A stretch of DNA of 64,000 nt from an uncultured Pirellulales bacterium (GTDB lineage: Bacteria > Planctomycetota > Planctomycetia > Pirellulales > Thermoguttaceae). Position numbers and translations under genes: made by a program. Where the stretch lies: NCBI GenBank assembly GCA_938015445.1, contig CALLPE010000012.1:1-64000 (forward strand), written 5' to 3'. Of this stretch, positions 17,562 to 58,048 are shown piece after piece; within the stretch, counting starts at the first letter, position 1, and each line of letters begins with the position of its first letter. The notes below the pieces were generated by a model, which ran no database searches, was not told the origin of the DNA, and worked only from the letters and a program-made list of their open reading frames with translations.

Positions 17562-18463
17562 ACTAGGGGTCTCTCATCGGGGCAGGTCTGTCGCAGAGAA
17601 ATATAATAGTCACCACACCGTCGATTTGTAAGCCCGGTTCATCAACACCTAATTTCGTCGGTTGTTCGCGATTAGTAGGTTCTCTGTCGCATGGTCTTAC
17701 AAAGTTCAGCGGCCCCGCCCAAATCGCTGCTTGCAAAGTCGATATATGCAATGTAGATGTAATAACTAATCTTTAGTGAACATTTCTGTTCCGCCATCCG
17801 CATGTGACTGGCTTGATACATGGTTAGATTTGACGTGTTAATACCCAGAGCGACTGGTTTTGTGGTTGCTGGGTGCATATACGAGTGGATAGGCACACCT
17901 CGGCTTAGCCCGACACGTCGGACCCGCCCGTTTTCTGTGCCCTGGCTCGGAAGCGTCAGCGACGTCCCGCTTGCCTTGCCTGGGCGGTTACGCAGCGAGT
18001 GAATGTTGCAAAAGATCAATCGCAAAACGCTTGTCTTCCCTGCCGCGATTCCGTAATCTGTAATCTGAATTGATTGAAACCACCCCGCAGTTAAGACGTG
18101 CCGGTAAACGTCGGCACCGGTTTCATCAGGCCGAGCGCCGCGGTGGGCGCCAGGGTGGCACCGTCGCGGGCGCAACTGCGGCGGATGGGAGGACATGCTG
18201 GGTTCCCCATGGTTCCGACCGTGTACGTCCCGGCGCCCCAACGAGGCTGTGGTAGCGCGTGACCAGCCGGTAAGTCGTGCCTAAAGTGCATTCGCCCCGA
18301 CGCTCACCTTCGGCTTCATGCCTAACAACACTGCAACAGCCCGGACTTTGCATACCAAGACTGCAAGAATCCGGGTGAGAAAACTCTCAAGATTTCTGTA
18401 GAATTTGAAAGATTTTGTACCATCCAAAAAACTCCGCAACATCTGACTTAAGGAGAACGAGCT
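17562..18463. other. Intergenic, 902 bp, with a GC-rich potentially structured island
   Basis: The open frames here look unlike proteins. The stretch 17580-17880 is AT-rich by local standards and may hold promoters. From about 18090 to 18300 the DNA turns very GC-rich and contains close hairpins, such as GTGCCG...CGGCAC near 18098-18117 and GCGCC...GGCGC near 18135-18150. This could be the leader of the gene at 18464 or a separate structured RNA. It does not match RNase P RNA, tmRNA or SRP RNA signatures that I know. Confidence 0.35.
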
Positions 18464-20038
18464 ATGACGTCGTTCGGCCAGTCGCACGGGTGTGCATGTT
18501 GCCAGCTTAATCGGCGATTGTTCTTGGCTCGGGGCTGTGCGGCCTGCGCAGGCGCGGCCGGCCTGCTCGGGGCTGGCAGCCGAAGCTACACAGCCGAGGA
18601 CGCCAGCAAAACCCGCGTGCGCATCGTCTTCGCCCTTCACGCGGTCAAACAACCAGTGCCGGATTGGCCGAACATCGGCTACGACTTCGCCCCGGTGATG
18701 AAGCGCATCGAGGAAGAGCTGTCGCGGCGGTGTCCGGATTTCGAGTTTCTTACCGCCATGGCCGCCGGGCCTGAGCAGGCAAAGAAGATCGTCGAAGACG
18801 ACAAGTCGGCAGCGATCGACGGCTACCTGGTCTACCAAATGAATTGCTGGAACCGCGTTGTGCAAACCATTGCCGAAACCGGCAAGCCCGTTTTATACGC
18901 CGATTATCAATACGCCGGCAGCGGCGGTTTCTTGGTTTATACGGCCAGTTTCCTGCGGAAGAATACGCCCAACGTGGGCTTCGTCGCTTCTTCGAAGATC
19001 GAAGACCTGGCCGCGGCGGTGCAGTGTTTCGAGCTGGTCAAAAAGGGCGGCAGCGTGGCCGATTTCGTGGCCGCCACCGCCAAGTTGCGGCAACAGCGCA
19101 CACCCAAGCCGGGCGACCTAACCGCAAAACCAGACGAGGTCAAACTGCTGTCGATCGACGAGTGCCGCAAACGAATGAAAGAGAGCAAGATTCTGGCCGT
19201 CGGCGGCGGCTGGCCAGGTATCATCCCGGCGATCCAGGAACAGATGGGCATCACAGTCGTCAACGTCCCCTTCGCCGAGCTGAACGACGCCTGGAAAGCG
19301 GCCGACAAAGACCAAGCTGGCCAGATCGCCGAGCGTTGGGCTAAAGCTGCCGCCGCCGTGGTGGACATCGCTCCCGGCGTCCTCCAAGATAGCGCGGCGA
19401 TGTATCTGGCGCAAAAAGCGGTTTTGCAAAAGCACGGGGCTAACGCAATAACGATCAACTGCTTGGGCGGTTTCTACGGCAAGCACATTCACGCTTACCC
19501 GTGCTTGGGCTTCTTCGAGTTGCTCAACGAAGGGTTGATCGGAGCATGCGAGTGCGACCTGCGCTCCACGGCCACCATGGTAGCCATGAGCGCCTTGACG
19601 CAAGGCCGACCCGGCTACATCTCCGACCCGGTGATCGACACCGCCCAGCGGCACATCATTTATGCCCACTGCGTGGCTTCGAATCGGGTGTTCGGGCCGC
19701 AAGGGGCCGCCAACCCGTTTACTATCATGACGCACTCCGAAGACCGACAAGGGGCCTCGGTCCGCTCCACCATGCCGGCCGGCTACATGACCACCACCGT
19801 CGAGTTCGCCCCTGAGCGGAAGGAAATCCTCTTCCATCGGGCCAAGGCGGTGGGCAATTCGACCGAGGATCGGGCCTGCCGAACCAAACTGGTGGCCGAA
19901 CCGGTCGGCGACATCGAAAAGCTGTTAACCGAATGGGACCGTTGGGGTTGGCACCGGGTAACTTACTACGGCGATCTGAAGGAGCCGGTGTATGCCCTGG
20001 CTGAGGCTCTAGGGTGGAAAGTTACCGAAGAAGCGTGA
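18464..20038 (+). CDS. Tat-exported sugar isomerase-like protein (L-fucose/L-arabinose isomerase fold)
   Basis: A 524-residue protein with a twin-arginine signal NRRLFLARGCAACAGAAGLL followed by a cleavage region near GAGSRSYTA. The mature part resembles the fucose/arabinose isomerase superfamily: an N-terminal Rossmann-like domain (VRIVFALHAV, AAIDGYLVYQMNCW, YTASFLRK) and a C-terminal part with NCLGGFYGKHIHAYPCLGFFELLNEG, ACECDLRSTATMVAM and VASNRVFGPQG. Cytoplasmic isomerases of this fold use Mn2+ bound by acidic and His residues; whether this exported protein is catalytic cannot be told. AGGAG precedes the ATG. It is a lone gene after the 902-bp gap. Tat export suggests that it folds, perhaps with metal, before translocation. 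Confidence 0.78.
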   Translation: MTSFGQSHGCACCQLNRRLFLARGCAACAGAAGLLGAGSRSYTAEDASKTRVRIVFALHAVKQPVPDWPNIGYDFAPVMKRIEEELSRRCPDFEFLTAMAAGPEQAKKIVEDDKSAAIDGYLVYQMNCWNRVVQTIAETGKPVLYADYQYAGSGGFLVYTASFLRKNTPNVGFVASSKIEDLAAAVQCFELVKKGGSVADFVAATAKLRQQRTPKPGDLTAKPDEVKLLSIDECRKRMKESKILAVGGGWPGIIPAIQEQMGITVVNVPFAELNDAWKAADKDQAGQIAERWAKAAAAVVDIAPGVLQDSAAMYLAQKAVLQKHGANAITINCLGGFYGKHIHAYPCLGFFELLNEGLIGACECDLRSTATMVAMSALTQGRPGYISDPVIDTAQRHIIYAHCVASNRVFGPQGAANPFTIMTHSEDRQGASVRSTMPAGYMTTTVEFAPERKEILFHRAKAVGNSTEDRACRTKLVAEPVGDIEKLLTEWDRWGWHRVTYYGDLKEPVYALAEALGWKVTEEA

Positions 20039-21917: not shown

Positions 21918-24900
21918 TTACCGTTCCCCTTCGGCCACTCCCCGGGAATACTCGCGCACCAGCTCGGCCCATTCGGCCGGGGGCGCCGCTCGGCCGGGAT
22001 CGAGCTTCGGCGAAGTTTTCTGCGGCGTCTGCCCGCCGCGCAATTCCGTCCCCCGCGGCCGCAGCCCCAGGCTGCGCAAGGCATCGTCAAGCTGACGCTT
22101 GGCAGCTTTGCCTTCCGGGCTGCGCGAAGCCTCGCCTGCCCGGCGATACAACTGCTCCCAGCGCTCGATGAACTTCCGGGCCTCCTCGGGAGTCCAACCC
22201 AGCCGATCAAGCAAATCGGGCTTTTCCTTGGCGAGCTGGTCCTTCAGGTGTTCCAGAGCCAGGATGGTCTGTTTTCGCGCGTATTCTAGGTTGGGGTCGT
22301 CGCCGCCCGGCTCACTGTCAGTCGGAGGCGGCGCAACCGCCTCGTTTTCGCCCGCCTTGCCGCCGGTGACAGGGGGGCCCTGTCCGCTGCGGCCAGGCGA
22401 GTCCGATTGACCCTTCGGCTGTGCTGTCTGCGGGCGGTCGCTGCTGGGCTGTTGGCTGCCGGGTGCGTCGCGGGAAGTTGGTTTGCCGCCGGGGCGGTCG
22501 CTGGGTTCCGGTTTGCCTTTCTCCGAATCGCTGGCTTGGCCTTCGCGTCGGACGGCCTGTTTGCCGGTACTCTTGTCAGTCTCGACATCCTCCCCCGCCC
22601 GCGTCCCGGTTTCGCCCTGACCAGGCTGTTTGGATTTCTCGCCGCCGCTTTGGGCATCGGTGCTGCTGCCGGATGTGCCCAACCCTGGACTATCCGACCG
22701 CTCGCCGCCGCCTTGACTCCGCCCGCCCGAACGATCCCCATCCGAATCGCTCTCCTGCCGCCCGTCGGACTGCCGGCCGCTAACGCTGGGGGATTGGGGT
22801 TTTTCCTTGGGTTCCGGCTTTCCCGACGGTCCATCGGCAGGCTGGCGCTCGCGCTGGCGATTGTCGGCTTGCGCTTCCGGGGAACCCTGCTGCGTGCCCG
22901 GCTCGGCCTGCCCGGCAGGCTTCTCCTGCTCGGTCGTCGGTTTGCCGCCGGACTGCTGAGCATCGGGTTTCGCTTCGGGCTGTTTGCCAGGCTCGGCAGG
23001 CTGATGTTCTTCTGCGCCGGCCGGCTGCTTCTGGCCCGGTTGGCCGACTGGCGGTTTCTGGCTCTCAGCAGGCACGCTGCCCGGCTCGGCCGCTTCAGGC
23101 CGACTGGGGGCCTGGCCGCCGTTTTCGCCGAACTGTTGCGACTGAGGCTTTTCGCCCGGCCGGGGCTGCTGGCCCGACTGTGACTTCTCGCCTGGTTGGG
23201 GCTTCTCGCCTGGCTGGGGCTTCTCCCCTGGTTGGGGTTTGTCACTTGGTTGGGGTTTGTCGGTTGGCTGCGCTGTCTCGCCTGGTTGGGGTTTGTCGGT
23301 TGACTGCGCTGTCTCGCCTGGTTGGGGCTTTTCGCCCGGCTGGGGCAAAGTTCCCGGCTGGTGTTCCGGCCCATCCGGTTTCTGGCCCGATGGTTTACTC
23401 CCCGGCTCGCTGCTGGGCGGCTGCGGGTCGGCCTTCGGCTGGCCAGACTTTTGTTGATTCTGCGCGCCGGGCTGCTTCTGCGGCTGGGCGGATGGCTCCT
23501 GAGCGGATTGCTGCTCGGAATTGTCCTGCCCGGCCGGCTGTCTCCCAGCGCCTGGTTGCTTCTGTCCGCTCGATTGCTCCTGGACGCCGGGCTGTTGTTG
23601 CCCGCCGGGTTGTTTGTTTTCTGCCGGCTGCTTTTCCCCGCCACTTTGGTTGTTGGGCTGTTGGTCGCGCGGCAGTTGTTCGGGTTTCTGGGCCAACTGC
23701 CGCTCGTCCGGCTTCGTCCCCGGCTGTTGGGGACCGGTTGCCGGCTCAGCACCTTGTTTTCCCGCGCCATCCTGATTGCCCATCTCGCCCTGTTTGTCTT
23801 GCTTAGCCAGCTCCTCTTGGCGATGACGGTTTATTTCTTCTATCGCATCACCTGGGTTGGCTTGTGGATCGATCGGCTCGCGCCGGGCAGAAGGTTTTTC
23901 GTCCCTGGGCCAATCCTTGCCGTTTTCCGCCGCCGGCTGCTGCCCCTGTTGCCGGTCGTCATGCGGCGATTGTTCTTGCGGCTGTTCCGGCTGAGGCTCT
24001 TCTGCGGCTTGACCCGGCTGCGATGGTTGCGTCTTCTGCCCGTCGGCCGGCTGCTGTTCCTGCCCTGCGGTTGGCTGCTTTTCCGCATCGCCGGGTTGCT
24101 GCGGCTGCGGTTGCGGTTGTTGATCGCCCAGGTCGTCTTGTTTATCGCCCATCTCGCCCGATCGGCCCTGCTGGCCGTCTGGCCGCCGCTGTTGGGACGG
24201 CTGCTGTTGTTGGCCGGGCTTTGTTTCGGCCTGCTGCCGCTCAGACTCGACCGGGGCGATGATGATCCAGCGTCTCTCGGTGGTCGAAACGTTCGGCGCC
24301 GACTTTCCGCCGACTTCCTTGTTGTCCTCGGCCTGGGCCCAGTATGCCACGCGGTCGCCGGCTTTGAGCTTCAGCTTCTGCGGCTCGAAGACCAACTGCC
24401 CCTGAAAATCGCCCTCGTGCGCCGGTTCGGAGCTAGGCTTCTCCAGCAACGGCGCAAGCGGCAATTCGGCCTGGCCGCGCAGGGCACGAACCGCCACACG
24501 CCGCAGACCGAAATCCGGGTCGCGCGCCGCGACCTTGATCGTCACACGTCCGTCCAGCGGCACGACGACCTCTGGCTGGGTCGGTTCGAGCAGCTCCACT
24601 TCTGGCGACAGGTCCGGCACGACTTCGATGGCATGACGGCTTGGCCAACGGTTGGAGTTGCGATTCCGGTCGATAAAACGCACTTGATAGGCCTCGAACT
24701 CCGGGCGTAGCGGATCGTCCTTGCTCAGCCGCAGCGTGAACCGGCCGCTGGCCTGCGTGCCCTTGACTTGCATGGGCAGACCGTGCCGCCCGTCGCAACC
24801 CAGGTCGATCTCCGCGCGAAGTATCTCCTGATTGGCCGTGGCGTGGACAGTTACCTCGGTGCCTTCGATGGCCCTAATGTCGCCCTGCCGATACACGGTT

Positions 24901-33342: not shown

Positions 33343-33636
33343 ACCGATTGTTGGGGGCCGCAGGCGGCTGAGACTTTGCCAAGCCGCTTGTATCGACAAC
33401 AGCGTGCGGCTAGTATAAAAGAGCGGTTGGGAAAAACGCCGCGGTAAGGGGTCGAGGCTCCTGACGCTTTGTGCAATTTACTTCGCTTTGTGCAATTTAC
33501 TACGCACGGACCACTGGACTTCGGCGCGCTACGACGCCGCGGTCTGCGCAGTTCGATCGCACGGGGATAAACTTGGGCGGCCGTTGCCGCAGCTCGCCTT
33601 GATCTGCCGTCTGCCGCCTGCCCGAACATTTTTGCC

Positions 33637-34398: not shown

Positions 34399-34872
34399 CC
34401 GAGGTCTTTTTACCTTGCGGCCAGCGGTCAAGCGGCTGAAAGTTTTTTGCAGCGATTCACCACACCGGCGCATTTGCTGCACGTGGGACGAAAATCGAAA
34501 TAAGCTCGGCGACCGCCAGTCGAATGTTCCCCGGTTCATTTGCTGCATATTCGCCGAAAATCGCACGTTACTTCTAGGGAAGCGAGGTGTTTTCTTTGTA
34601 AGATGGCCTGGAGCCGTCGCGAAAATAGCGTGGAGCCGTCGCGAGAATGGCCTGGAGCCGTCGCGGCCGGGCCGACCCCATTCGCGTTTTTGGCCGCGCC
34701 TTACCAGTCGGCATTATTGCGCCGAGCGACACAGTTCCACGCGGCCAGTCGCGGCAGGCGGGAGCGACGGCTACACTTTTACGGCCGCTAGTTCAGGCAA
34801 GATATTTTTATGGCTGCCAGTGCAGGCAGAAAATACTGCCATCGGTTAAACAGTTGAACTAAGGATATGCCC
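34399..34872. other. Intergenic, 474 bp, repeat-bearing
   Basis: No convincing gene. It holds two related segments at 34471-34497 and 34537-34563 (both CATTTGCTGC, 10 variable bases with a conserved end, then AAAATCG), 66 bp apart, and the 22-bp array listed separately. AAGGA at 34861-34865 is the ribosome site of the LRR gene. Confidence 0.5.
34609..34674. repeat. 22-bp tandem repeat, three units
   Basis: Three head-to-tail units at 34609-34630, 34631-34652 and 34653-34674 share TGGAGCCGTCGCG; the first two continue AAAATAGCG and AGAATGGCC, while the third diverges after GG. The match is nearly exact, so the expansion looks recent. Confidence 0.85.
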
Positions 34873-35975: not shown

Positions 35976-36581
35976 ATGACAAGGCTCGCCCGTGTTGTCC
36001 TGCTGTTTGCTGGTATCTGCCTGGTGTTTGCCATTTGCGCGGCGGTGGCCGTCGCTGGTGAAGACAAGCCGAAGCGTACGCCGGACGTGGTTTACGTTCC
36101 CACCCCGCACGATGTAGTGGAAAGGATGCTGGAAATCGCCAAAGTAACCAAGGACGACGTGGTGTACGACCTGGGGTGCGGCGACGGGCGCATCGTGTGC
36201 ATAGCAGCCAAGAAGTACGGCTGCAAGGCGAAGGGATTCGACATTGATCCGCGCCGTGTAGCCGAAGCCCGCGAAAACGTCAAAAAGTACGGCGTCGAGG
36301 ACCTGGTAACCATCGAAGAAAAGGACATCTTCACCCTCGATCTGAGCGAGGCCACGGTGGTCACCCTCTATCTGTTGCCCAGCCTCAACGTAAAACTGAT
36401 TCCGCAACTGGAAAAGCTTAAACCCGGCTCGCGCATCGTTTCGCACGACTTCGACATGCGCGGCGTCACGCCTGACAAAGTCGAAAAGTACACCTCTAAG
36501 GAAGACAATATCTCGCACTACATCTACTTCTGGACGACCCCGCTGAAGAAGGAAAAAAGCGAGAAAAACTCCGAACAGTAG
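35976..36581 (+). CDS. Signal-peptide-bearing class I SAM-dependent methyltransferase
   Basis: A 201-residue protein. Residues 1-28 form a signal peptide (VVLLFAGICLVFAICAAVAV, then AGED). The body is a class I methyltransferase: VPTPHDVVERML, motif I VVYDLGCGDGRI (63-73), KAKGFDIDPRRVAEAREN for motif II with the acidic residue binding the SAM ribose, LVTIEEKDIFTLDLS, ATVVTLYLLPSLN and LKPGSRIVSHDFDMRG. The fold resembles histone-methylase/DOT1-like or protein-lysine methyltransferases. SAM is normally cytoplasmic, so export of such an enzyme is puzzling; the hydrophobic segment might instead be an uncleaved anchor with the domain outside or inside. GAGGAGA precedes the ATG. The gene is isolated. 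Substrate unknown. Confidence 0.82.
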   Translation: MTRLARVVLLFAGICLVFAICAAVAVAGEDKPKRTPDVVYVPTPHDVVERMLEIAKVTKDDVVYDLGCGDGRIVCIAAKKYGCKAKGFDIDPRRVAEARENVKKYGVEDLVTIEEKDIFTLDLSEATVVTLYLLPSLNVKLIPQLEKLKPGSRIVSHDFDMRGVTPDKVEKYTSKEDNISHYIYFWTTPLKKEKSEKNSEQ

Positions 36582-36626
36582 CCTTCCCAACGCCAGCTTG
36601 CGCGAACTTGCTCGACCCTCACTTGC

Positions 36627-36666
36627 GGCATGCCCAACGCGCCACAAGCGCCAGTTGGGGCATGGC
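36627..36666. other. Inverted repeat downstream of the methyltransferase gene
   Basis: GGCATGCCCAAC and GTTGGGGCATGGC can form a stem of about 10-11 pairs with one bulge, around a loop containing GCGCCACAAGCGCC. It lies 45 bp after the methyltransferase stop. There is no T-run after it, so it is not a classical intrinsic terminator, but it could stabilise or end the transcript. Confidence 0.4.
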
Positions 36667-36744
36667 TGAAATTCGCGCTATGCCTGCAAAAGCGTCCGGC
36701 CAGACCGCAACCCAGGCCCAATAGTCTCCTGGGCTTGCTGCTTG

Positions 36745-36951
36745 ACAGGATTGCAAGCCGACACGATTGCAGCGTGATAGGATCGCACTGTGATCGATTT
36801 GCACTTTGATGGAATTGCAGCCCGATAGGCTTCCTCGCTGACAGGACTTCACCCCGACAGGACTTCACCCCGATGGGATTTCAGTCCGATGGGATTTCAG
36901 TCCGACGGGATTGTAGTCTAACAAAATTGCAGTCCGACAGGTTTGGGCCAG
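36745..36951. repeat. 16-bp degenerate tandem array, about 13 units
   Basis: Thirteen units in strict 16-bp register: starts at 36745, 36761, 36777, 36793, 36809, 36825, 36841, 36857, 36873, 36889, 36905, 36921 and a partial at 36937. The consensus is close to ATGGGATTTCAGTCCG. Units 7 and 8 (ACAGGACTTCACCCCG) are identical, as are 9 and 10 (ATGGGATTTCAGTCCG); the outer units are more diverged. It fills most of the 427-bp gap between the methyltransferase gene and nadC. Confidence 0.9.
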
Positions 36952-37008
36952 AGGCGGCGCCAGCGACAGGCGGGCAGTTATCCGCGCTGGTGGCTGCTGC
37001 CGGCCGCC

Positions 37009-37989
37009 CTACAGCCAGTCGAGCGATATATTCAGCGCCGGAGCGGAGTGCGTAATCGCCCCAACGCTGATCCGCTCGACCCCTGTTTCGGCTATTGCGC
37101 GGACGTTGCCCAGCTCGATGCCGCCGGAGGCTTCTAACTGCACCGCCGGGGCAACCGCGTCGCGAATGGCCACGGCCTGACGCAACTCCTCGATGGTCAT
37201 ATTGTCGAGCAACACCACGTCGGGGCTTGCCGGCAGCACCTCGGCCAACTGCGCCAAGCTGTCCACTTCAACCTCGATGATTGTTTCGTGGTCAGGGGGC
37301 TTAGCCGCATTTTGGGGCGTATCCGTGTTTTTAGCCGTGTCCCCGTTTTGCGCCGTGTCCAGTTGGGCCGACAGATACTGCCGGGCGGCCTGAACTGCTG
37401 CGAACAGCGAACCCGCGCAACCCTGGCCCACGCGCGACCACAGCGCCAAATGGTTGTCCTTGATTAGCACGGCATCGAACAGACCCGTGCGATGATTCAA
37501 ACCACCCCCGCAGCGGACAGCGTATTTTTCCAGCGCACGCCAGCCCGGCGTGGTTTTCCGCGTGTCGTAGATCCGCGCCCGCGTGCCGCCGACGGCCTCG
37601 ACGAACCTTCGGGTCAGCGTGGCTATGCCCGATAATCGCCCCAATACATTCAGTATTAAGCGCTCGGCGGCCAGTATCGTCCGTGCCGAACCTTCGATCA
37701 GCGCGATTTTCTCCCCTGCGCCCACCAACTGACCGTCTGCGACACGCGTCGTGAGCCGCACGCTCGGGTCGAGCGTCTGGAACGTCAGTTCTACGGCAGG
37801 CAGACCAGCCACCACGCCGGGCGCGCGGGCGACTATGGCCGCCCGGCCCACCGTCCCGGCAGGCACCACTGCCGCACTGGTCAAGTCGCCCCGGCTGCCG
37901 AGGTCCTCTTCCAAGGCCAACCTCAGCAACCGCCGCCACGACTCAGCCACACGCTCGTCCCAACTATGCTGATAGAACTCCTTGGTCAT
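37009..37989 (-). CDS. nadC: Nicotinate-nucleotide pyrophosphorylase (quinolinate phosphoribosyltransferase)
   Basis: A 326-residue NadC, which makes nicotinate mononucleotide from quinolinate and PRPP in de novo NAD synthesis. The start at 37989 (MTKEFYQHSW) was chosen because the longer frame to 38556 runs antisense to the ComEA-like gene. Family blocks are EEDLGSRGDLTS, AERLILNVLGRLSGIAT, IYDTRKTTPGWRALEKYAVR, GGGLNHRTGLFDAVLIKDNH, IIEVEVDSL, VLLDNM and LEASGGI with ISVGAITHS. Between LSAQLDT and the IIEVEV strand there is an unusual 20-residue polar insert (AQNGDTAKNTDTPQNAAKPP) encoded by imperfect 18-bp repeats. The family is usually 280-300 residues, which the insert explains. The gene is divergent from the ComEA-like gene. 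Confidence 0.95.
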   Translation of the reverse strand: MTKEFYQHSWDERVAESWRRLLRLALEEDLGSRGDLTSAAVVPAGTVGRAAIVARAPGVVAGLPAVELTFQTLDPSVRLTTRVADGQLVGAGEKIALIEGSARTILAAERLILNVLGRLSGIATLTRRFVEAVGGTRARIYDTRKTTPGWRALEKYAVRCGGGLNHRTGLFDAVLIKDNHLALWSRVGQGCAGSLFAAVQAARQYLSAQLDTAQNGDTAKNTDTPQNAAKPPDHETIIEVEVDSLAQLAEVLPASPDVVLLDNMTIEELRQAVAIRDAVAPAVQLEASGGIELGNVRAIAETGVERISVGAITHSAPALNISLDWL

Positions 37990-49230: not shown

Positions 49231-49268
49231 GGTGCAACTCCGCCGGTAAGGTGCAACTCCGCCGGTAA
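49231..49268. repeat. Exact 19-bp tandem duplication after pckG
   Basis: GGTGCAACTCCGCCGGTAA occurs twice head to tail (49231-49249 and 49250-49268), starting 8 bp after the pckG stop. The copies are identical. Confidence 0.85.
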
Positions 49269-55212: not shown

Positions 55213-56508
55213 TCAGACGAACTTGGTGATTCCGGGCATAGCTACCGGTGGCGTGGGCAGCGGCCCCCACTGGTACTGGGGCGGCGACAGGTCTTCCTTG
55301 GAATTCATCGCCTGTTCCCAAGTGATCATCTGCCCGGTGTAGGTCACCATCCGGCCCAGGATGGCCAACATGGTACTCAGCGCCATGTAACGCCCGTTGT
55401 TTATCGGTTTGCCTTTGCGGATGCTGGCAAACAGCTCGTCGTGCTCGGTCTGATATATGTTGTTTTCCGGGCCGTCGTAGGTCCAGTTCACTTCGCCGGC
55501 AATACGCAGTCCTTTGCGGCCTTCGCTGATGAATGCCCGCCCCCTGCTTCCCACGGCCGCGGCGCTGATGTCGTTCTTGCAGCCGGGCATTTGTCGGGTG
55601 TTGCTAAACAGTTTGGTGCCGTCCTCGTATTCGTACACCACCGAATGATGGTCGTAGATGTTGCCGTACTCCGGACCGGTGCGCACCTGTCGGCCGCCCA
55701 TGCCGATTGCCCGTGCCGGATACTGATCTTTCATCATCCACGCGCATACGTCGAGGAAATGCACGTGCTGCTCGACATTGAAATCGCCCGACAGCCATGT
55801 GAAGTAATACCAGTTGCGGCATTGCCAGTGCATATCGGTCCAATCTGGCTCGCGTTTCTTCACCCAGATGCCACCCCGGTAATCATTGGCCTGCAAAGTG
55901 TGGATTTGTCCGATCGCGCCGTCTTGGATGCGCTTGATCGTTTCCTGAAAGCCGTAGGAGTATCGCAAGCACAGCCCGGAGACGACCGACAAGCCCTTCT
56001 GCTCGGCCAACTGGCAGCTTGCCAGCACCGAGCGCACACCGGGAGCATCGACCGCTACTGGCTTTTCGGCGAAGACATGTTTGCCGGCCTCGATGGCGGC
56101 CTTCAGATGAGCTGGGCGGAAGTGCGGCGGCTCGCACAACAGCACCACATCCACCCCGCAGCCGATAAGCTGCCTCCCGGCGTCGAAGCCCGAAAACTGA
56201 CGCTCCGGCGGGACGTCGATCTTCTCGGCCAGCTCGGGCCGCTTCTGGAGGCTGCTTAAACAGATTTTCATTCTGTCGTCGAACAGGTCGGCCAGCGCCA
56301 CCAACTTGACGTTTTTATCTGCCGAAAGGGCTTGTGCGGCAGCGCCAGTACCGCGTCCGCCGCAGCCGATCAGCCCTACCCGCAACAGGTCGCTGCCGGC
56401 CAGATGCACTCCGAAAGCCGGCGTCGAGGCAGCCAGTCCGCCCGCCGCTGCCAAGACCGTCGAGCGCCGCAAAAACTCCCGCCGCGAAACAGTTGACCGT
56501 GTGCTCAT
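55213..56508 (-). CDS. Tat-exported Gfo/Idh/MocA-family oxidoreductase
   Basis: A 431-residue protein with a twin-arginine signal SRREFLRRSTVLAAAGGLAA. The mature part has a Rossmann fold (RVGLIGCGGRGTGAAAQAL), the family block HVFAEKPVAVDAPGVRSVL with the EKP lysine, and the C-terminal substrate-binding sheet (NWYYFTWLSGDFNVEQHVHF, then LDVCAWMM). Members use NAD(P) to oxidise or interconvert sugars or cyclitols. Planctomycetes carry many exported copies; cofactor loading before Tat export is plausible. The last residues before the stop (GPLPTPPVAMPGITKFV) are a usual ending in this subgroup. Convergent with the radical SAM gene, 77 bp apart. Substrate unknown. Confidence 0.9.
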   Translation of the reverse strand: MSTRSTVSRREFLRRSTVLAAAGGLAASTPAFGVHLAGSDLLRVGLIGCGGRGTGAAAQALSADKNVKLVALADLFDDRMKICLSSLQKRPELAEKIDVPPERQFSGFDAGRQLIGCGVDVVLLCEPPHFRPAHLKAAIEAGKHVFAEKPVAVDAPGVRSVLASCQLAEQKGLSVVSGLCLRYSYGFQETIKRIQDGAIGQIHTLQANDYRGGIWVKKREPDWTDMHWQCRNWYYFTWLSGDFNVEQHVHFLDVCAWMMKDQYPARAIGMGGRQVRTGPEYGNIYDHHSVVYEYEDGTKLFSNTRQMPGCKNDISAAAVGSRGRAFISEGRKGLRIAGEVNWTYDGPENNIYQTEHDELFASIRKGKPINNGRYMALSTMLAILGRMVTYTGQMITWEQAMNSKEDLSPPQYQWGPLPTPPVAMPGITKFV

Positions 56509-56700: not shown

Positions 56701-56940
56701 AAGGTCTGAAGCACAGGCCAAAGGCCTTGCCCGTAAGTGTGGATTCCGGCTTGGACCTGCGACTTCCGGCTTGCACGTGTGAGTTCTGGCTTGCGCGTAT
56801 GAATTCTGGCCAACACCTGGTGGTTCTGGGTGGCAGGTATCATTTGTGGCCCGCTCGTGTGGGCTGCGCGTTGCACGTCCGAGTTCTGCGTTTCAATCGC
56901 AAGCTGTGGCTGTTACGCGCAAGCGAAGGGTTGAACCACC
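56701..56940. repeat. 20-bp degenerate tandem array, about 12 units
   Basis: Related 20-mers follow in strict register. The core of each unit starts at 56721, 56741, 56761, 56781, 56801, 56821, 56841, 56861, 56881, 56901 and 56921, with a weak one at 56701. The best conserved core is AGTTCTGGCTTGCACGTGTG (consensus); examples are GATTCCGGCT, ACTTCCGGCT, AGTTCTGGCT, AATTCTGGCC and AGTTCTGCGT. Divergence is high at both ends and lowest in the middle. Confidence 0.85.
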
Positions 56941-57106: not shown

Positions 57107-57209
57107 GATGTTAAACCGGGGTGGTATGGCTGTCGTTTTACCTCATTCCTGGCACGCAGCCGCCAGCCGTTCCGATGTTAAACCGGGGTGGTATGGCTGT
57201 CGTTTTACC
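57107..57209. CRISPR. Two identical 36-bp repeats with one 31-bp spacer (CRISPR-like)
   Basis: The 36-mers at 57107-57142 and 57174-57209 are identical, begin GATGTTAAACC and end GTCGTTTTACC, and are separated by 31 bp of unrelated sequence. The ends (GTTAAAC and GTTTTAC) are a near inverted repeat, as in many CRISPR repeats. Two repeats are the minimum possible array, and no cas gene or clear leader was seen, so a simple duplication is the main alternative. Confidence 0.35.
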
Positions 57210-57226: not shown

Positions 57227-57272
57227 TCCGCTGTTTGTAAAAATGCAAATCCGCTGTTCGTAAAGATGGAAA
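57227..57272. repeat. 23-bp tandem duplication
   Basis: TCCGCTGTTTGTAAAAATGC followed by AAA (57227-57249) is repeated as TCCGCTGTTCGTAAAGATGG followed by AAA (57250-57272), with three substitutions. Confidence 0.8.
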
Positions 57273-57769
57273 AAAGAACGTTGTAAGTACGGAAAGCGAC
57301 GTCGCACGCAATTCGGCATCGGGCGAGCCTTGGGTAACGCGGAAGCCGATTCGAGCGAATCGAGAAGATCGAAGGATTTGTCGGATTCGGGCTGGACGGC
57401 GTGACTAGGCTTTGCATAATAGATGGTTGCTGGATTCCGTGCGTGCAGGAGCCGAGTGCAGGGGTGGAAGGCAAGCCGCTATGCACGGATAAACTAGGCG
57501 TACATATCGGCATTGCGTGTTGCAGTTTCAACAGCCACTGTCGCCCTATCGGTTCACCGTTGCCCGGCTGCTACATGGAGCAGCCAACCGGTTCGTCACA
57601 GTTGATAAAGGCGTCGAAGCGTCGCGCTTCGCTATTATCCGGGCGTTTGCAGGGCGGTTGATGTACCGACCGGGCCATGACCGATAACTGCAATGCTAGC
57701 GGCGGAGCCGACGCGACTTGAGGTATACTTGCACGGATGGGATTCGGCCTCGCTTTGGGGAGCGCAGCA

Positions 57770-58048
57770 ATGCACATTCACGGTCCAGCTCATCTACACG
57801 GCCCGCAACCAATCTCAGGGCCGCACGCTTCTAGACCAGCAGGCGCAGCCAAGCCACCGCAACCGTCGGCTATCGTCGACGAGTTGCAGATATCCGACGT
57901 AGCTCGTCTGGTGGCAGAAACCCATCAACTGCCCGATATCCGCCACGAGCGCGTGCAGGCGATCCGAGAACAAATTGCCGCCGGCACGTACGAAACGCCG
58001 GAGAAACTGGAAATCGCCATCTCGCGATTGCTGGACGAACTGGCCTGA
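57770..58048 (+). CDS. flgM: Anti-sigma-28 factor FlgM
   Basis: A 92-residue FlgM-like protein, which holds the flagellar sigma factor FliA inactive until the hook-basal body is finished. The N-terminus MHIHGPAHLHGPQPISGPHA matches the His/Gly/Pro pattern I recall from planctomycete FlgM proteins. The C-terminal sigma-binding half reads LPDIRHERVQAIREQIAAGT and YETPEKLEIAISRLLDEL, as in the FlgM family (RxxxIxxxIxxGxY). ATG 57770 has GGGGAG at 57757-57762; an in-frame ATG at 57737 was rejected for lack of a site. No other flagellar gene is adjacent. With cheB at 28.2 kb it suggests a motile life stage. Confidence 0.9.
   Translation: MHIHGPAHLHGPQPISGPHASRPAGAAKPPQPSAIVDELQISDVARLVAETHQLPDIRHERVQAIREQIAAGTYETPEKLEIAISRLLDELA

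What the first reader, a model, noticed from the sequence alone, without database searches (positions are those of the whole stretch)
36745..36951. Thirteen-unit 16-bp intergenic array
A strict 16-bp register is kept over about 207 bp although units differ, with identical neighbours in the middle (units 7-8 and 9-10). 16 bp is not a multiple of 3, so coding selection is excluded. It could be a protein-binding array, a nucleoid or segregation site, or a slippage product.
Basis: seen in the sequence. Interest (0 to 1): 0.55.

Follow-up and report, generated by a model that had tools for sequence, protein, structure and literature searches.

The report
Old, decayed tandem-repeat array (minisatellite)
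A short stretch of DNA between two bacterial genes is a worn tandem repeat, one of many unrelated ones in a genome that seems to hold more of them than its sampled relatives, and nothing found suggests that this one is a binding site.

Summary
The array is real: 13 head-to-tail 16-bp units at 36745-36952. Lag-16 identity is 130 of 191; the best of 100 shuffled windows reached 90. It fills half of a 427-bp convergent gap between a methyltransferase-like gene and nadC. No second array of this motif was found in the held genome and no counterpart in 39 relatives.

It is not unique in kind. A sample of 806 kb of the same 4.48-Mb genome holds 43 degenerate arrays (0 in each of five Markov nulls), with varied periods and sequences; those called coding have only periods of 3n, noncoding ones any. 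Noncoding TRF arrays: 56 in 182 kb here, 9 in 270 kb of 26 relatives, 0 in 31 kb of E. coli. Some near-perfect arrays sit at contig ends. Units look like diverged duplicates: neighbours are most alike and changes transition-rich. Column conservation does not exceed a neutral duplication model.

Best explanation: a slippage-born minisatellite decaying by point mutation, without detected function. The open question is why this planctomycete genome holds so many.

The parts
36745..36952 (.). degenerate tandem array, 13 units of 16 bp, consensus ACAGGATTGCAGTCCG (units 0.50-0.88 identical to it)
36841..36904 (.). units 7-10: two pairs of identical neighbours, read as the most recent duplications (inferred)
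36729..36744 (.). possible further, strongly decayed unit at the upstream edge (8 of 16 consensus matches)
35976..36581 (+). methyltransferase-domain protein (Methyltransf_31/25), left neighbour, points towards the array
37009..37989 (-). nadC, quinolinate phosphoribosyltransferase, right neighbour, points towards the array

Best explanation
The array is a minisatellite born locally by tandem duplication (replication slippage or unequal exchange) of a 16-bp stretch in weakly constrained DNA between two convergent genes. It grew by repeated duplication of one or a few units, most recently in units 7-10, and has since decayed by point mutation, with weak units at the edges. It has no selected sequence function that could be detected. 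It is one member of a genome-wide set of independently born arrays. Shown: head-to-tail units, adjacent units most alike, transition-rich differences, no excess of shared words with other arrays, a range from perfect to decayed arrays, and an excess over the sampled relatives. Inferred: the slippage step itself, its timing, and the absence of function.
For: Adjacent units are 0.677 identical against 0.595 for all pairs (permutation p 0.0019). Differences between neighbours are 36 transitions to 26 transversions. Over the 31 noncoding arrays of the sample, 40.5% of in-register mismatches are transitions, against 31.8-33.6% out of register. There are 43 arrays in 806 kb of this genome and 0 in each of five Markov nulls. 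Noncoding TRF arrays number 56 per 181.7 kb here against 9 per 270.3 kb in 26 relatives. Periods mod 3 are 8/10/13 in noncoding arrays and 10 of 10 are 3n in coding ones. Arrays share no more 9-mers with one another than array-free intergenic DNA does (128 of 465 pairs against 136.6, sd 11). Gene orientation around intergenic arrays is close to the share of intergenic bases. Of 61 contig ends examined (of 126), 7 carry an array in the last 300 bp against 32 of 2000 random stretches; 4 of the 7 run to the very end and are 0.96-1.0 self-identical, and the C8 end and C32 start show the same 14-bp unit. Column-conservation variance is not above a neutral duplication model (P 0.79 and 0.81).
Against: Identity does not fall clearly with distance beyond the nearest neighbour (r -0.16, p 0.12), and adjacent identity sits near the upper end of the neutral simulations (P 0.07 and 0.14). 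Position 1 is A in 13 of 13 units. There is no indel inside the array in spite of heavy divergence; detection by a fixed period favours such arrays. No same-genus genome was listed, so copy-number change was not observed. The plus-strand fold is slightly better than shuffles (z -1.94, 8 of 200 as good).
Confidence: 0.82

Rival explanations
1. A protein-binding array (regulator, nucleoid or partition protein) in which the 16-bp unit is a degenerate operator with dyad GGATTGCAGTCC.
For: The consensus has an imperfect 12-bp dyad (5 of 6 pairs); position 1 is invariant and positions 4, 7, 8, 10, 11 and 16 are each kept in 11 or 12 of 13 units.
Against: About 7% of random circular 16-mers have such a dyad, and the units keep it no better than random mutation of the consensus does (37 pairs against 39.5 expected). 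Column heterogeneity is not above neutral. No second array of this motif found in the 4.48 Mb held. The gap is convergent, with no promoter-like site.
Confidence: 0.08
2. A transcribed RNA element, or a transcription-end buffer for the two convergent genes.
For: Convergent position; the plus-strand fold is somewhat better than shuffles (8 of 200 as good).
Against: The other strand is unremarkable (z -1.19); no terminator-like site in 36500-37100; no Rfam match on the array at E up to 1, the one weak match (Ms1, 14.3 bits, gathering score 162) lying inside nadC; intergenic arrays are not concentrated in convergent gaps (3 of 27, this one included).
Confidence: 0.06
3. A copy of a dispersed or mobile repeat family.
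For: Some bacteria have dispersed satellite families, e.g. Fam_1_14_23 of Chloroflexus aurantiacus (PMC6749651, section 6 read).
Against: The motif forms an array at this locus only, as far as found, and arrays share no excess of words.
Confidence: 0.02

Closest known systems
Degenerate minisatellites / intergenic VNTR loci of bacteria (definition recalled, not from a call)
   Same: Head-to-tail units of tens of bases, locus-specific sequence, intergenic, neighbours most alike, differences by point mutation
   Different: Copy-number variation not shown here; more diverged than usual typing loci (recalled)
Satellites with short repeats (10-30 nt) in the prokaryote survey PMC6749651 (section 6 and passages read)
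   Same: Locally arisen short-period repeats; gene-borne ones of length 3n; Rhodopirellula baltica, a planctomycete, listed at 4.06 per Mb
   Different: Bacteria in its Table 1 reach at most 23 per Mb. The present sample gives 63 TRF arrays in 806 kb, 78 per Mb, but by my own criteria; the paper's methods were not read, so the two figures are not comparable
Pervasive tandem repeats of Borg elements (PMC9879509; abstract and passages read)
   Same: Genome-specific abundance, independent origin, intergenic units mostly not of 3n, coding units of 3n, arrays ending contigs
   Different: Borg repeats are perfect and A-rich and lie on archaeal extrachromosomal elements; these are mostly degenerate and lie in a bacterial genome assembly; base composition of the arrays was not tested here

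Membership tests
minisatellite (tandem repeat, unit of tens of bases) | head-to-tail units of constant length beyond chance | tested here: met
   130 of 191 lag-16 matches; best of 100 shuffles 90
minisatellite (tandem repeat, unit of tens of bases) | units related by duplication (neighbours most alike) | tested here: met
   adjacent 0.677 against all-pair 0.595, p 0.0019; the distance trend alone is not significant, p 0.12
minisatellite (tandem repeat, unit of tens of bases) | copy-number variation among strains (VNTR) | not testable with these tools
   no same-genus genome among the 39 relatives listed
protein-binding (operator or partition) array | motif columns conserved beyond neutral duplication | tested here: not met
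   variance of column information P 0.79 and 0.81 in two neutral simulations
protein-binding (operator or partition) array | dyad symmetry kept in the units | tested here: not met
   37 pairs observed, 39.5 expected from random change, P 0.79
protein-binding (operator or partition) array | binding by a host protein | not testable with these tools
   bench test needed
dispersed satellite family | same unit arrayed at several loci | tested here: not met
   only this locus has neighbouring units of the motif at the sensitivity used
Borg-type tandem repeats | perfect units | tested here: not met
   units 0.50-0.88 identical to the consensus; a few near-perfect arrays exist at contig ends

The most novel reading that the evidence does not exclude
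This planctomycete genome has a heritable, lineage-specific bias to make tandem duplications of about 13-30 bp, several times (about nine by TRF, about six by autocorrelation) more often per noncoding base than its sampled relatives. The bias continually seeds its intergenic DNA, and in-frame its proteins, with new repeats that then decay: a chromosomal counterpart of the Borg repeats, caused by some feature of its replication or repair.
Probability: 0.5. Interest if true: 0.5.

Novelty: new member of a known kind. Interest (0 to 1): 0.33.

Why it matters
Alone, the array is an ordinary worn minisatellite. As one of many, it shows a bacterial genome in which short tandem duplication looks unusually frequent compared with 26 sampled relatives. 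That gives a comparison in which the unknown cause of high repeat birth (polymerase, repair or life style) could be looked for, and it warns against reading single arrays in such genomes as regulatory sites.

Tried and rejected
Search for the motif elsewhere: three lone matches with two mismatches. One was read and has no array around it; all three lie in stretches scanned, which found no array at them. DNA search of the 291-bp region in 40 genomes, the own one included: the best match outside the own locus is 20 bases, E 0.0136; the list was cut at its weak end. Rfam, promoter and terminator scans: nothing on the array. Loss of mismatch repair as the cause: MutS and MutL are both present in the genome above the curated cut-off, so this simple cause was dropped; no other repair or replication gene was looked for. 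Enrichment in divergent gaps: 11 of 27 intergenic arrays, where such gaps make up 33% of the intergenic bases; not pursued. Shared words between arrays: a first control, reversing sequences, suggested a slight excess (128 pairs against mean 106, range 94-121); the better control, array-free intergenic DNA of the same genome, removed it (136.6, sd 11). The methyltransferase gene lies beside nadC in 0 of 109 nadC loci of other genomes, while the helix-hairpin-helix gene on nadC's other side is found in 25 of 109, so the gap has no counterpart to align there; flanks were 3 kb at most and often cut short, and the loci include other phyla.

Limits. The sample was 40 stretches plus the window (806 kb of 4485 kb), mostly contig starts. 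Five stretches were placed around weak hits (C3, C11, C24, C26, C27); they hold 5 of the 43 arrays. Gene calls are my own simple codon-score predictor, and an in-frame array is easier for it to call coding than one of another period, so the 3n rule in coding arrays is partly circular. Relatives were sampled unevenly (9 to 200 kb each), the fragmented ones from contigs known from earlier hits. By the autocorrelation count the excess is smaller than by TRF: 31 noncoding arrays in 181.7 kb here (171 per Mb) against 8 in 270.3 kb (30 per Mb), 19 arrays of all kinds in 1434 kb of relatives. One relative, G004, reaches 3 in 15.4 kb by that count, as dense as this genome, but its three arrays, like those of G005 and G010, have a 7-bp sub-period, which none of the 43 here has by the test. 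Of the 7 contig ends with arrays, two (C2, C21 starts) look like copies of one element and one lies short of the end.

Full report
OBSERVATION. At lag 16, 130 of 191 positions match, against a best of 90 in 100 Markov shuffles of the 64-kb window over all lags 10-40. It fills about half of the 427-bp gap between two convergent genes: a methyltransferase-domain protein (35976-36581, +) and nadC (37009-37989, -). My gene caller put no gene on it.

WHERE IT IS. The window is part of a 4.48-Mb, 63-contig genome, 88% complete. The five best named NadC matches are Pirellulales, Planctomycetaceae and Planctomycetota metagenome bins at 53-56% identity (80 of 299 loci were kept, and very near records may be left out there), so the organism is a planctomycete, probably of Pirellulales (inferred). 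No same-genus genome was listed among the 39 relatives.

IS THE MOTIF SHARED? Not as far as found. A DNA search of the region in 39 relatives finds nothing better than a 20-base match, E 0.0136. The gap has no counterpart in the loci held: the methyltransferase gene is beside nadC in 0 of 109 nadC loci, while the gene on nadC's other side is found in 25 of 109.

THE KEY RESULT. The genome holds many arrays of the same build. In 806 kb (window plus 40 stretches) an autocorrelation scan finds 43 arrays, and five Markov nulls of the same sequence give 0 each. Split at half coverage by predicted genes, 31 are noncoding and 10 are at least 70% coding, leaving 2 between; noncoding periods fall 8/10/13 on remainders 0/1/2 of three, and all 10 coding ones are multiples of three. 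The gene caller favours in-frame arrays, so that last contrast is partly circular. Those printed have periods from 14 to 30, with differing sequences. The noncoding arrays share no more 9-mers than array-free intergenic DNA. Among 27 clearly intergenic arrays, 11 lie in divergent, 11 in same-direction and 3 in convergent gaps, and 2 at contig starts, close to the share of bases in each class.

RELATIVES. With TRF (score 60 or more, period 10-45, at least 2.5 copies), this genome has 56 noncoding arrays in 181.7 kb of noncoding DNA. Twenty-six relatives (all 24 same-family genomes listed and two of the same order) have 9 in 270.3 kb, and E. coli K-12 0 in 30.7 kb. The most array-rich relative with more than 10 kb of noncoding DNA, G011, has 3 in 13.2 kb (228 per Mb against 308 here), so single relatives may approach it. 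By autocorrelation the figures are 31 here against 8 in the relatives, about six-fold per base. Five of those 8 (three in G004, one each in G005 and G010) are another kind, built on changing 7-bp units; none of the 43 arrays here has a 7-bp sub-period, though 5 of 43 have one of 4, 8 or 9. Among 128 smaller loci fetched earlier, 12 hold 14 arrays, coding or not, so other planctomycetes have some too.

HOW THE ARRAYS AROSE. Neighbouring units are more alike than units at large (0.677 against 0.595, p 0.0019), though identity does not fall significantly with distance overall (p 0.12); differences between neighbours are transition-rich, 36 to 26. Across the 31 noncoding arrays, 40.5% of in-register mismatches are transitions against 31.8-33.6% out of register. 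This is what point mutation on copies of one ancestor gives. Noncoding TRF arrays range from 65-70% to 95-100% internal match. Arrays are over-represented at contig ends: 7 of the 61 ends examined (of 126) against 32 of 2000 random 300-bp stretches. Of the 7, four run to the very end and are 0.96-1.0 self-identical, two look like copies of one element, and one lies short of the end. One near-perfect 14-bp array is present at both the end of contig 8 and the start of contig 32, as expected if the youngest arrays break the assembly. A range from new to worn is thus present.

IS THIS ARRAY SELECTED? No sign of it. The variance of column conservation is ordinary for a neutral tandem-duplication model with the same mean identity (P 0.79 and 0.81), with adjacent identity at the high side of that model (P 0.07 and 0.14). 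The consensus has an imperfect dyad, GGATTGCAGTCC, as about 7% of random 16-mers would, and the units do not keep it. RNA folding is weakly better than shuffles on one strand (z -1.94) and not on the other (z -1.19). No Rfam match, promoter-like or terminator-like site lies on it.

WHY THIS GENOME? Unknown. MutS and MutL are present, and loss of mismatch repair would in any case not be expected to drive 16-bp unit changes (recalled). The nearest published parallel found is the Borg elements: pervasive, independent, genome-specific repeats with 3n units in genes and mostly other lengths between genes, but perfect and A-rich (PMC9879509, abstract and passages). A survey of prokaryote satellites lists a planctomycete at 4 per Mb and bacteria up to 23 per Mb by its own criteria, not read (PMC6749651, section 6 and passages). 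Six literature searches showed no title on such arrays in planctomycetes. Three listings were cut to 10-12 of 34-40 papers and one to 15 of 129; the pair Pirellulales and tandem repeat gave no paper. The library holds open-licence papers only.

VERDICT. A real but ordinary worn minisatellite. The unexpected part is the company it keeps.

Noticed in passing
56714-56899: Second degenerate intergenic array, 20-bp period, in a 1.2-kb divergent gap between an oxidoreductase-like ORF (55213-56508, -) and an ORF at 57737-58048 (+) that looks FlgM-like (both names recalled from the translation, no family search made); it shares only an 8-9-base word with the 16-bp array.
   Followed up: partly
57107-57142 and 57174-57209: Exact 36-bp direct repeat pair with a 31-bp spacer, found nowhere else in the genome at up to 3 mismatches; a two-unit duplication or a lone CRISPR-like pair; cas genes were not looked for.
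   Followed up: partly
23089-23400: 18/36-bp array inside a predicted coding frame, so probably an in-frame protein repeat.
   Followed up: no
33464-33505, 34606-34665, 49231-49268, 57227-57272: Further short tandem duplications of 19, 22, 19 and 23 bp, of which that at 49231 is exact.
   Followed up: no
L248 end and L087 start: The ends of contigs C8 and C32 carry the same near-perfect 14-bp array, so the two contigs may be neighbours separated only by an unassembled repeat.
   Followed up: no
L057 and L075, bases 1-90: The starts of contigs C2 and C21 show the same first 90 bases: a repeated element at an assembly break.
   Followed up: no
L200:193-346; L202:9590-9759 and 18452-18610; L270:6179-6407; L276:2766-2905; L050:654-893: Relatives G004, G005, G010 and G020 carry arrays with a 7-bp register in which the heptamer itself changes along the array (blocks of different heptamers in a row) while the register mostly holds; a different kind from the arrays of this genome.
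   Followed up: partly
L122:4261-4920: A named Planctomycetaceae bin (Gsp477_bin66) has two 21-bp arrays beginning about 0.8 kb beyond nadC, with units unlike the one here; coding status not tested.
   Followed up: no
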